Below are positions 19,691-53,978 of a stretch of 64,000 nucleotides of DNA, piece after piece (the first letter of the stretch is position 1; each line of letters begins with the position of its first letter). This DNA is from Mycolicibacterium houstonense (lineage in GTDB: Bacteria; Actinomycetota; Actinomycetes; Mycobacteriales; Mycobacteriaceae). The stretch is from the NCBI RefSeq assembly GCF_900078665.2, contig NZ_LT546207.1, positions 3,368,414-3,432,413 of the forward strand, given 5' to 3'. The notes below the pieces were generated by a model, which made no database searches, was not told the origin of the DNA, and was given only the letters and a program-made list of their open reading frames with translations. The position numbers were made by a program, and so were the translations under genes.

Positions 19691-20365
19691 TCACCAGACG
19701 AGCGGCACCAGCCGGTAGTGCACCTTCTGCGTGTACTCCCCATACCCGGCGAGCTGCTGGCGGAGCAGCTTCTCCTCGTCTTGGATCCGGAAGGTGTAGA
19801 TGATCAGGACAGGAATGAGAACAGCCAGCCCCCACCAGGACCCAAGCGCCAGCGGCATTCCCGCCACCATGAGCAGGGCCCCCATGTACATCGGGTGCCG
19901 GACAAGCCCGTAGAGTCCGGTGGAGACCAGCTTCTGCTCCGATTCCACCGTGATGTTGGCGGACGCGTAGCTGTTCTGGACGATCGTGAAGATCGTGACC
20001 ACAAGGCCGATCGCAAACATCACGTTGCCGATCCACGATACGACGGTGGGCACCGGGGACCAACCGAAGCGATGATCGAGACCGCAGAACACCGGTAGGG
20101 CAATGGACATTACCGCGATGACGCCGATGATGGCCTTCTGCACCGGTCTCGATTCCGACTTCTGCCCGACGCGCATGCGCCGCTCCACGACCGCCTTGTC
20201 CCTCCTCAGCAGGTAGACGGTGGACAGAATCGCCATGACCGAATACACGGTCAGGAAAACCCATGCCTGCCAGTAGTCGAATGTCCCCGCCGGAACGAAG
20301 AGCAGTGCGCCCAACAGCAACAGGCCGAAAACTGATTGAACAGCCACCCGGATATTGGTGTTCAT
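19691..20365 (-). CDS. ICMT/PEMT-type membrane methyltransferase (copy 2)
   Basis: 224 residues, several membrane helices, with STGLYGLVRHPMY near residues 148-160 and a DEEKLLRQQ segment followed by GYGEYTQKVHYR near the end. These are the SAM-binding and substrate-side features of the isoprenylcysteine carboxyl methyltransferase / phospholipid methyltransferase family. It is a paralogue of 1096-1761. An AGGAGG lies five bases upstream of the ATG. The gene follows the acyltransferase by 28 bp and appears to be the last gene of the mbtH-NRPS-A-NRPS-B-acyltransferase operon. That position makes it the leading candidate for forming the C-terminal methyl ester of the released nonapeptide. Membrane location would fit a very hydrophobic substrate. 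The two copies may serve the products of NRPS-B and NRPS-C separately. Confidence 0.82.
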   Translation of the reverse strand: MNTNIRVAVQSVFGLLLLGALLFVPAGTFDYWQAWVFLTVYSVMAILSTVYLLRRDKAVVERRMRVGQKSESRPVQKAIIGVIAVMSIALPVFCGLDHRFGWSPVPTVVSWIGNVMFAIGLVVTIFTIVQNSYASANITVESEQKLVSTGLYGLVRHPMYMGALLMVAGMPLALGSWWGLAVLIPVLIIYTFRIQDEEKLLRQQLAGYGEYTQKVHYRLVPLVW

Positions 20366-20393
20366 GTGATCCTCCTACGTGTGTGAACCGCGC

Positions 20394-21791
20394 TCAAAGG
20401 TAGGTGCCGGTCAGCGAAAAGTCGTTCAAGGCATTTGAAATATCTTGGCGTAAGCGGTCATTGGTGTTGACTCGACCGGGCAGATAGGAATGGGCCGAGA
20501 TGAAGACTCGTCCGTTCGCTCGTCCGGACAGGAACGACTGCGTCCCGCCGAACCGGTTGAGCATCGCCTCGGTCAGCCCCAAGTGGGGAAGAACCTTGAT
20601 CGCGAAGTGGTCGGACTCCGTGCCGTCCACTCTGCTGGCGGCCGGATTGACCACACCGAGGTTGGACGAACCGACCTGGTTGGGTGAACCGACACGAGAA
20701 GTGGCCCCGAGGAACCGCTTGGGTAACAGCGGAATAATGGCATTCACTACGTGTTCCTCGTCGGGCACCTCCCCATGGCGAATCAATGCTTGTTTGACCG
20801 CGGCCCGGACCTCGCGCAGATCCGTGGTCGCAAGCGCGGGGTCGACCGTGACGGCCACGCTGCTTCTCGCGTTGGCGCGGGTATCGCCGTCGGCACGCTG
20901 ATTGACCGGCATCATCACGATCACCGAACCGTCTGGACCGACGCGTCTTGCTCGATGGGCAAGCCGCGCCGCCAACCCCACGAGAAGGCTGTTGCTGGTC
21001 CCGCCGAGTGCCTGTGCGCGAGCGTCCCACTCGCCGGCATCGACCAGGACCGTTGCCATCGGAACCGCGATCGTTTCGTCGGAACCGCCGGTAGGTACAG
21101 GTGCAGTGTTCGTCGACGAAGGGGGCGGCCCAGCAGCACCGGCACTGTCGCGGCTACGGCGTGCCAGCCGATTCGCAGCGACAACACCACGGCACACGGC
21201 CGGGATGTCCCGCACGGCTTGCCAGCTGTCCTCCCACAGGGCTTTCCAACGACCACGCGATGCCGCAGCAGGCCAGCGGATCGGGTCTTCGCGGCCGAGA
21301 GCCGCATCAGCCAGTGCCTCACACAACCCGACGCCGTCGATGAGGCAATGCGAGACGACCAAGCTGACGCCCGACCCTCCGTCAGTGAACGGGAGCACTG
21401 CGAGATGCCAGCCGGGTCCGTGCTCGCAGTCAAGTGGAGTATTGATCTGCTCGTCCAGCCAGTCATCGAATTCTCCACGTGGCCTGGCGGTCTCGACGAT
21501 CTCGAGGTCGGAGGAAGTGTCCGCTGCCACCCAGCGGTGCCGGCCGAACGGCAGCGGCGACCGTTCGATGCCGCGGGACAACCGCCCCCGCCGGAGATTC
21601 TCATGGAACCGGCGGAGACCGTCGATATCGATCGGGCGGTCGTACACCCAGACACTCTGCAGCAGGCTGTTGACGCCGATCGCCAGTCCGAGGTCGAACG
21701 TGCGCTGGTCGAGCACATCGAGAACGTTGCTCAGCTTCGGAACTGCATCCGCGTTGGATTCGCGTGCGTCGGTTGTGTACGTGGCCCGCAT
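20394..21791 (-). CDS. PapA/WES-like acyltransferase (copy 2), candidate peptide O-acetyltransferase
   Basis: 465 residues, paralogous to 18331-19668 along its length, with a slightly longer N-terminus before the shared SNVLD motif. The active-site motif is SHCLIDG near residues 140-146; again serine replaces the first histidine, while the catalytic histidine and DG remain. An SSNLGVVN motif near 368-375 fills the place of the alcohol acyltransferase SN-G motif. A proline- and serine-rich loop at about 223-243 separates the two halves. It begins 61 bp after the end of NRPS-B and is followed 28 bp later by the methyltransferase, so it probably belongs to the main operon. Acetylation of threonine side chains of the peptide is inferred from the fortuitine structure, not shown by sequence. 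Confidence 0.77.
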   Translation of the reverse strand: MRATYTTDARESNADAVPKLSNVLDVLDQRTFDLGLAIGVNSLLQSVWVYDRPIDIDGLRRFHENLRRGRLSRGIERSPLPFGRHRWVAADTSSDLEIVETARPRGEFDDWLDEQINTPLDCEHGPGWHLAVLPFTDGGSGVSLVVSHCLIDGVGLCEALADAALGREDPIRWPAAASRGRWKALWEDSWQAVRDIPAVCRGVVAANRLARRSRDSAGAAGPPPSSTNTAPVPTGGSDETIAVPMATVLVDAGEWDARAQALGGTSNSLLVGLAARLAHRARRVGPDGSVIVMMPVNQRADGDTRANARSSVAVTVDPALATTDLREVRAAVKQALIRHGEVPDEEHVVNAIIPLLPKRFLGATSRVGSPNQVGSSNLGVVNPAASRVDGTESDHFAIKVLPHLGLTEAMLNRFGGTQSFLSGRANGRVFISAHSYLPGRVNTNDRLRQDISNALNDFSLTGTYL

Positions 21792-53702: not shown

Positions 53703-53747
53703 CGAACTCTCCCACTGCGAGATGTGCTGCACGCCCCAAGGGACCGG

Positions 53748-53978
53748 TTAGCCGTCGACCCGTTGTGCTTGCGCCAATCTGTCGCGCAGGCTCTTCGGTC
53801 GGATATCCGGCCAGTTCTGTTCGATGTAGTCCAGGCACGCCGTGCGGTCCGCTTCGCCGAAGACGACCTTCCAGCCGGCGGGAATCTCGGCGAAGGTCGG
53901 CCATAAGCTGTGCTGCTCCTCGTCGTTGATCAGGACGAGAAATCGGCCATTGTCATCGTCAAACGGGTTGATAGTCAT
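53748..53978 (-). CDS. MbtH-like protein
   Basis: 76 residues, the normal size. It carries the family signature: NDEEQHSLWP near residues 20-29, the IPAGW motif, and the C-terminal WPDIRPKSLRDRLA. MbtH-like proteins bind A domains and are often needed for their folding and adenylation activity. It is the first gene of the main synthetase operon, 45 bp before NRPS-A. The ATG at 53978 follows GGAGGACCAG; an in-frame start 18 bases further up lacks such a site. NRPS-C has no MbtH gene of its own, so this protein presumably serves all three synthetases. Confidence 0.96.
   Translation of the reverse strand: MTINPFDDDNGRFLVLINDEEQHSLWPTFAEIPAGWKVVFGEADRTACLDYIEQNWPDIRPKSLRDRLAQAQRVDG

What the first reader, a model, noticed from the sequence alone, without database searches (positions are those of the whole stretch)
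19691..53978. Probable biosynthetic operon of fortuitine, an acyl-nonapeptide methyl ester
Seen: nine A domains across NRPS-A and NRPS-B, one identical code at positions 1, 3 and 4, N-methyltransferases only in modules 2 and 5, one identical threonine-like code at 6 and 7, different codes at 8 and 9, a starter C domain, no epimerisation domain, and a TE. Known (from memory): fortuitine is acyl-Val-MeLeu-Val-Val-MeLeu-Thr(OAc)-Thr(OAc)-Ala-Pro-OMe, all L. The pattern of repeats and N-methyl positions agrees at all nine positions. I do not recall a published gene cluster for it.
Basis: partly seen in the sequence, partly recalled or inferred. Interest (0 to 1): 0.95.

Follow-up and report, generated by a model that had tools for sequence, protein, structure and literature searches.

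The report
Fortuitine synthetase with two tails
These genes from a relative of Mycobacterium fortuitum encode a nine-step peptide-building enzyme line whose layout matches fortuitine, a lipopeptide described in 1965, so they likely make it; a second finishing enzyme beside it would let the same starter enzyme make a sister lipopeptide.

Summary
NRPS-A (five modules plus an unpaired condensation domain) and NRPS-B (four modules, thioesterase) have nine adenylation domains, N-methyltransferases only in modules 2 and 5, a starter C domain and no epimerase. Module groups {1,3,4}, {2,5}, {6,7}, {8}, {9} match the recalled fortuitine sequence. Calibration on two mycobacterial lipopeptides of published sequence gives Ala for module 8 and Thr for 6/7 (one residue off). 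Val, MeLeu and Pro stay uncalibrated; the module 9 code is not a standard Pro code. The operon also holds an acyltransferase and an ICMT-type methyltransferase, candidates for Thr O-acetylation and the methyl ester. A genome identified here as M. fortuitum carries the same line, the only multimodular NRPS locus found there with this layout. The window's species is a relative.

Beyond the finding: a second A-first, four-module, TE-ended synthetase (NRPS-C, 1819-15246) lies beside it. It lacks its own first C domain and its start resembles NRPS-B's. Such a second tail occurs in 8 of 8 fetched fortuitum-group loci, with four predicted sequences. I infer a branched line: one head, two alternative tails. 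No metabolite was measured. My paper searches turned up no fortuitine gene cluster.

The parts
53976..54132 (-). leader before MbtH, of which a copy stands before NRPS-C
   Evidence: blastn 126 of 159 columns identical, E 3e-30
53748..53978 (-). MbtH-like protein
   Evidence: PF03621, 101 bits
34098..53732 (-). NRPS-A, the head: starter C, modules 1-5, MT in 2 and 5, terminal C domain
34098..35450 (-). terminal C domain of NRPS-A (first half of split module 6), start approximate
   Evidence: motifs at residues 6101 and 6229 of NRPS-A
21853..34101 (-). NRPS-B, first tail: modules 6-9 and TE; starts with an A domain; overlaps the NRPS-A stop by four bases
20394..21791 (-). AT1, acyltransferase of the condensation / WS-DGAT fold; candidate Thr O-acetyltransferase
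   Evidence: TIGR02946 weak, fold search, position after Thr-Thr tails
19691..20365 (-). ICMT1, ICMT-family methyltransferase; candidate for the C-terminal methyl ester
   Evidence: PF04140 39.7 bits, cut-off 24; 4a2n E 3.6e-8
18298..19668 (+). AT2, paralogue of AT1 (62%)
16298..18250 (+). HtpG, lies inside the locus; role in it not claimed
   Evidence: NF003555 759 bits
15312..15464 (-). copy of the leader, before NRPS-C
1819..15246 (-). NRPS-C, second tail: four modules, MT in the third, TE; starts with an A domain, no C of its own
985..1761 (+). ICMT2 (matched part 1111-1758), facing the end of NRPS-C
   Evidence: PF04140 26.4 bits, cut-off 24

Best explanation
The locus encodes a nine-module lipopeptide assembly line that likely makes fortuitine or a very close relative, and its head NRPS-A is predicted to pass its chain to either of two tails, NRPS-B or NRPS-C. 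Proposed steps: the starter C domain of NRPS-A acylates the first residue; modules 1-5 build Val-MeLeu-Val-Val-MeLeu; the C domain at the end of NRPS-A condenses this chain with the residue loaded on the first module of the tail. With NRPS-B the tail is Thr-Thr-Ala-Pro, released by the TE, methylated to the ester by ICMT1 and O-acetylated on Thr by AT1. With NRPS-C the tail is a Val-like residue, Ala, an N-methylated residue of unknown identity, and the same residue as module 9. Shown: genes, domains, motifs, code groups, conservation. Calibrated: Ala at 8, Thr at 6/7. Inferred: Val, MeLeu, Pro, the roles of AT1 and ICMT1, and use of NRPS-C by the same head. Odds: fortuitine-type product of A plus B about 0.85; head shared with NRPS-C about 0.6.
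For: Layout and code groups; starter C domain by tree. Same line in G368, taken as M. fortuitum (AT1 99% to P0012; locus), and no other fitting NRPS locus there. Head, NRPS-B, AT1 and ICMT1 in 8 of 8 fetched loci, one head incomplete. Ala and Thr codes agree with L5P-type and GL8P-type synthetases (peptides from PMC8103206 and PMC11978893). AT directly after the tail in 11 of 11 tails with Thr-like codes at 6-7 and 0 of 5 others. For the second tail: it starts at A in 8 of 8 loci; its first 26 residues are on average 80% identical to those of NRPS-B of the same genome, 56% to internal linkers; the leader is duplicated.
Against: The module 9 code is not a Pro code known to me, and none of 942 A domains in the set has H at position 322; a close code stands in module 2 of a M. 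xenopi NRPS. Val and MeLeu codes are uncalibrated; non-methylating Leu in the GL8P-type line has another code. Module 4 is Leu-like in 2 of 7 intact heads. The ranges of tail-start and linker identity overlap (65-92 against 38-81), and the septicum second tail is as close to the GL8P tail as to its own NRPS-B (65%). The L5P-type NRPS of M. avium has no ICMT beside it. No expression or metabolite data.
Confidence: 0.8

Rival explanations
1. The line makes a different, undescribed lipononapeptide with the same N-methylation layout; fortuitine resembles it but differs in one or more residues, for example a small residue in place of Pro at 9.
For: Heads with MT at 2 and 5 are common: 23 of 53 five-module C-first proteins in the set. 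Codes of modules 1, 2, 3, 4, 5 and 9 are uncalibrated; module 9 code is unusual. Module 4 differs in septicum and neworleansense.
Against: Only 9 of those 23, counting the window's protein twice (P0001 and P0127), have one code at 1, 3 and 4. The M. fortuitum genome has no other locus that could make an N-methylated nonapeptide, and all modules there group as fortuitine requires.
Confidence: 0.13
3. AT1 and ICMT1 have other roles: AT1 transfers the long acyl chain or acts on another lipid, and the methyl ester arises elsewhere.
For: The fold is shared by many acyl transfer enzymes; AT2 is present whatever the tail; no ICMT beside the M. avium L5P-type NRPS, though L5P is a methyl ester.
Against: ICMT1 follows AT1 in 9 of 9 loci seen; AT directly after the tail goes with Thr-like codes at 6-7 and not with the common head.
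Confidence: 0.3

Closest known systems
Fortuitine (Barber, Jolles, Vilkas, Lederer 1965; title seen in a reference list; structure recalled)
   Same: Nine residues, N-methyl at 2 and 5, one residue at 1/3/4, Thr-Thr at 6-7, Ala at 8, all L, methyl ester
   Different: No gene locus found in my paper searches; residues 1-5 and 9 are not proven by codes; window species is not M. fortuitum
L5P synthetase of M. avium group (P0210)
   Same: Starter C, one N-methylating module, TE, Ala code identical to module 8
   Different: Five modules in one protein, an epimerase after Phe, no second tail seen, no ICMT beside it in G357
GL8P synthetase type (PMC11978893; loci in the window's genome and in G368)
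   Same: Starter C, head ends in C and the partner starts at A; ICMT homologue beside it in both genomes
   Different: Eight modules, epimerases, no N-methylation, one partner only; no TE found in the stretches read here
Vatiamide pathway (Moss et al. 2019, title seen; content recalled)
   Same: Works like it: one upstream synthase with alternative downstream partners
   Different: Hybrid PKS/NRPS of cyanobacteria; here the join lies inside one NRPS module, between C and A, and the second tail varies between species

Membership tests
Fortuitine biosynthetic locus | Nine modules, N-methylation in 2 and 5 only, starter C, no epimerase, TE | tested here: met
Fortuitine biosynthetic locus | Codes grouped as 1=3=4, 2~5, 6=7, 8, 9 | tested here: met
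   2 and 5 share the domain type with MT but not the exact code in the window; identical in G368
Fortuitine biosynthetic locus | Thr at 6/7 and Ala at 8 | tested here: met
   Ala code identical to, and Thr code one residue from, calibrated codes
Fortuitine biosynthetic locus | Val at 1/3/4, MeLeu at 2/5, Pro at 9 | tested here: inconclusive
   no calibrant; module 9 code not a recalled Pro code
Fortuitine biosynthetic locus | Present in M. fortuitum | tested here: met
   G368, identified by AT1 99% to P0012
Fortuitine biosynthetic locus | Makes the compound | not testable with these tools
   no metabolite data
ICMT family (ICMT1) | Family profile and relation to a solved ICMT | tested here: met
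   PF04140 above cut-off; 4a2n E 3.6e-8; NF040696 equivalog cut-off not reached, 68 of 160 bits
WS/DGAT acyltransferases (AT1) | Subfamily profile TIGR02946 above its cut-off | tested here: not met
   31.9 against 309.95 bits; no Pfam match; fold like condensation domains with 6chj at rank 34. Filed only as of this fold
Glycopeptidolipid (GPL) synthetase | Epimerases and a terminal reductase giving alaninol (definition recalled) | tested here: not met
   TE end, no epimerase

The most novel reading that the evidence does not exclude
A natural branched assembly line: one five-module head hands its chain, through a module split between its C and A domains, to either of two complete four-module tails, so one locus makes fortuitine and a sister lipopeptide with another C-terminal tetrapeptide. 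The second tail varies between fortuitum-group species (four patterns in eight loci) while head and first tail stay nearly constant: a natural swap of tails at one fixed junction.
Probability: 0.6. Interest if true: 0.82.

Novelty: new variant of a known kind. Interest (0 to 1): 0.72.

Why it matters
It would give a gene locus to a lipopeptide known for about 60 years and open its function in the mycobacterial envelope to gene deletion. It offers a small code table for mycobacterial NRPSs (Ala, Thr, Phe, Ile, Tyr, Leu) by which other orphan lipopeptide loci can be read. The two-tail arrangement, if real, marks a C|A junction that nature has used repeatedly to exchange tails, of use to those who engineer NRPSs. 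It also predicts roles that I do not know to be described: an acyltransferase of the WS/DGAT fold and an ICMT-like methyltransferase acting on lipopeptides.

Tried and rejected
Considered and rejected or weakened. (1) The N-methylation layout as proof by itself: heads with MT at 2 and 5 are widespread (23 of 53). (2) An ICMT beside every lipopeptide methyl ester NRPS: in M. avium (G357) the one ICMT homologue lies elsewhere. (3) SfLAP (45-857) and the fatty-acid-AMP ligase left of the window as fortuitine genes: they stand beside a type I PKS and an MmpL, which looks like a trehalose-lipid type locus (recalled); not claimed. (4) Proof of Pro at module 9 by code: failed. (5) The 2017 paper on L5P is not held, so the L5P assignment rests on layout plus abstract and passages of PMC8103206. 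(6) My first linker comparison used a loose pattern that misplaced some linkers; one search replaces it. (7) The AT1 model is of moderate confidence (pLDDT 64.7; TM-scores of the listed hits about 0.4-0.5). (8) ARAGORN's tRNA at 30834-30928 lies inside NRPS-B and is not taken as real. (9) No dedicated NRPS specificity predictor was available; codes were read by my own alignment, with GrsA positions recalled.

Paper searches that showed no fortuitine gene cluster: (held library only; listings seen, only the top 20, 20 and 8 of 79, 99 and 33). One search found one paper with the word fortuitine, a reference-list entry.
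Full report
What is there. On the minus strand lie, in order, MbtH (53748-53978), NRPS-A (34098-53732, 6544 aa), NRPS-B (21853-34101, 4082 aa, its start overlapping the NRPS-A stop by four bases), AT1 (20394-21791) and ICMT1 (19691-20365). NRPS-A has six C, five A, five T and two MT domains and ends with an unpaired C domain; NRPS-B starts with an A domain and has four A, four T, three C and a TE. Core motifs are intact, except that the last C domain of NRPS-B reads HHIAGDA, as it does in 8 of 8 NRPS-B proteins. 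The first C domain groups with the first C domains of L5P-type and GL8P-type synthetases, apart from all internal ones (no support values). There is no epimerase.

Codes. A1=A3=A4 DYWSMAGVY, A2 DAFLVGAIW, A5 DAFLAGLIW (both with MT), A6=A7 DYWSVGMVH, A8 DVWSVAAVY, A9 DVWNVAG-Y. The positions were set by anchors on the GrsA phenylalanine domain, recalled. The identical codes at 1, 3 and 4 partly reflect concerted evolution: A1 and A3 of one genome are on average 91% identical (82-100, n=7) against 84% between A1 of different genomes (80-87, n=21). If the residue classes of fortuitine (3, 2, 2, 1, 1) were dealt at random over nine positions there would be 15120 orders; only one is met (arithmetic; a rough yardstick, since the layout was matched after the fact).

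Calibration. Two mycobacterial lipopeptides of published sequence give a code table. P0210 (cluster named M. avium) has an extra C-type domain after module 1, MT in module 2 and a TE, with codes DVWTVVAMC, DAGIVVGIW+MT, DFWTVGVMW, DVWTVAGMC, DVWSVAAVY, fitting L5P, D-Phe-NMeVal-Ile-Phe-Ala (PMC8103206, abstract start and passages). GL8P-type synthetases in the window's genome (864-924 kb, in broken frames) and in G368 give, in G368, DFWSVGMVH, DVWSVAAVY, DVWTVVAMC, DFWTVGVMW, DAESLAAIC, DFWTLGAVY, DFWSVGMVH, DFWSVGMVH, fitting T-A-F-I-Y-L-T-T (PMC11978893: abstract, section 6, part 1 of section 8, and passages). Unlike the published locus, no TE was found at the end of these two. The two sets agree on Phe, Ile and Ala. 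By this table module 8 is Ala, and 6 and 7 are Thr with one residue changed (F to Y). Val, MeLeu and Pro have no calibrant. Both assignments of synthetase to peptide are mine, by layout.

Module 9. Among 942 A domains of the NRPS proteins collected, none has the H at position 322 of the Pro codes I recall. The gap-type code of A9 is frequent there (DVWNVAG-Y, 23 domains). A close code, DVWNVAA-Y, stands in module 9 of M. conceptionense P0248 and in module 2 of a M. xenopi NRPS of unknown product. Pro at 9 is inferred from fortuitine, not shown.

Producer species. AT1 of the window is 82% identical to P0012, named M. fortuitum, so the window is from another member of the group. G368, one contig of 6.41 Mb, has AT1 99% identical to P0012 and is taken as M. 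fortuitum. It has MbtH, a head with 1=3=4 DFWSMAGVY and 2=5 DAFLVGAIW with MT, a first tail with DYWSVGMVH twice, DVWSVAAVY and DVWNVAG-Y, then AT1 and ICMT1. Its C-domain scan lists 32 matches, in this locus, the GL8P-type locus (3.118-3.150 Mb), a locus at 4.022-4.041 Mb (mycobactin-like, by recall) and two single genes.

Conservation. Of 394 genomes of the genus searched with P0012, nine matched at E <= 1e-220. Eight loci were fetched: own, M. septicum, M. neworleansense, M. lutetiense, strain HK-90, M. fortuitum, M. setense, M. boenickei (names inferred as told). All eight have RecQ, MbtH, a head, NRPS-B, AT1, ICMT1, a second tail, AT2 and SfLAP; HtpG was found in seven. The setense head is short and in broken frames in that assembly (an intact one of another setense record is P0134); neworleansense NRPS-B is in two frames. 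In the ninth genome, G356, a short contig shows NRPS-B, AT1 and ICMT1; its second tail was not looked for. Module 4 is DFWTLGAIY in septicum and neworleansense, DYWSMAGVY or DFWSMAGVY in the other five intact heads.

Second tail. NRPS-C (1819-15246, 4475 aa) begins with an A domain and has four A, four T, three C, one MT and a TE. No C domain was found between it and HtpG. Its codes are DYWSMAGVY, DVWSVAAVY, DIWGLGQMW+MT, DVWNVAG-Y; septicum and neworleansense have the same. M. fortuitum has DYWSVGMVH, DVWSVAAVY, DYWSVGMVH, DYWSMAGVY; lutetiense DYWSVGMVH, DVWSVAAVY, DFWTLGAVY, DFWSLGAVW; setense, boenickei and HK-90 three Thr-like codes and a gap-type code. The first 26 residues of the two tails of one genome are on average 80% identical (65-92, n=8), against 56% (38-81, n=56) for internal C-A linkers of the same genomes; the ranges overlap. 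In six of the sixteen tails compared with the GL8P-type tail, identity is 54-65%; own and fortuitum second tails are 81% identical to their NRPS-B, but the septicum one is 65% identical to both. The leader before MbtH recurs before NRPS-C (126 of 159 columns, E 3e-30); septicum and lutetiense keep an MbtH frame there (83%) and HK-90 a distant one (44%). The window's genome has, besides, a GL8P-type locus whose head has its own neighbouring tail and a locus at 1.91-1.94 Mb. This makes NRPS-A the most likely donor for NRPS-C; it is an inference.

Tailoring. An AT gene lies directly after the tail, on the same strand, for 11 of 11 tails with Thr-like codes at 6 and 7 (eight NRPS-B, three second tails) and for 0 of 5 others. 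The genomes are related, so these are not independent events, and two of the five others (fortuitum, lutetiense) do contain Thr-like codes. The AT1 model has a condensation-type fold, with a WS/DGAT enzyme (6chj) at rank 34, at moderate confidence. ICMT1 belongs to the ICMT family and follows AT1 in 9 of 9 loci. ICMT2 sits at the end of the second tail in own, septicum, neworleansense and fortuitum, 4 of 8. In M. avium (G357) the one ICMT homologue is not beside the L5P-type NRPS, which counts against a general rule.

Verdict. Fortuitine-type product of NRPS-A plus NRPS-B: about 0.85. NRPS-C as an alternative tail of the same head: about 0.6. No expression or metabolite data were available.

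Noticed in passing
G000:C1 about 877,900-911,700 (L053-L055) and G368:C1 3,117,687-3,150,448 (L082-L083): Both genomes carry an eight-module NRPS whose code order fits the GL8P octapeptide T-A-F-I-Y-L-T-T of M. abscessus, which PMC11978893 reports only for the M. abscessus complex and close species. In the window's genome it is in broken frames; no TE was found at its end in either.
   Followed up: partly
PMC11978893 formulas; G000:C1:912406-913062 (L013); G368:C1:3150479-3151135: The reported formulas of GL8Pa and GL8Pb each hold one CH2 more than the free acid with the listed groups, which would fit a C-terminal methyl ester; an ICMT homologue stands beside the GL8P-type NRPS in both genomes.
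   Followed up: partly
NRPS-B third C domain, motif at residue 2891 of 21853-34101(-): The motif is HHIAGDA instead of HHxxxDG in 8 of 8 NRPS-B proteins and in none of the eight second tails; it is the C domain that would join Ala to the module 9 residue.
   Followed up: partly
L058 (15 kb left of the window) and window 45-857: MmpL, FadD21/28-like fatty-acid-AMP ligase, a type I PKS of 2126 aa and SfLAP: looks like a trehalose-lipid type locus next door.
   Followed up: partly
P0143/P0262, P0147/P0271, P0149/P0270, P0156/P0268: Other mycobacteria have C-ended five-module heads (MT at 2 and 5) and A-first four-module tails with different codes, by pairs of matching source names or contigs: a wider head-and-tail family.
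   Followed up: partly
55094-57214 (-): RecQ-type helicase whose C-terminal end matches a phosphoribosyltransferase domain weakly (below the Pfam cut-off).
   Followed up: no
57261-60028 (-): 4-hydroxy-2-oxovalerate aldolase, acylating acetaldehyde dehydrogenase and a 2-oxo-pentenoate hydratase-like gene: a meta-cleavage lower pathway beside the locus.
   Followed up: no
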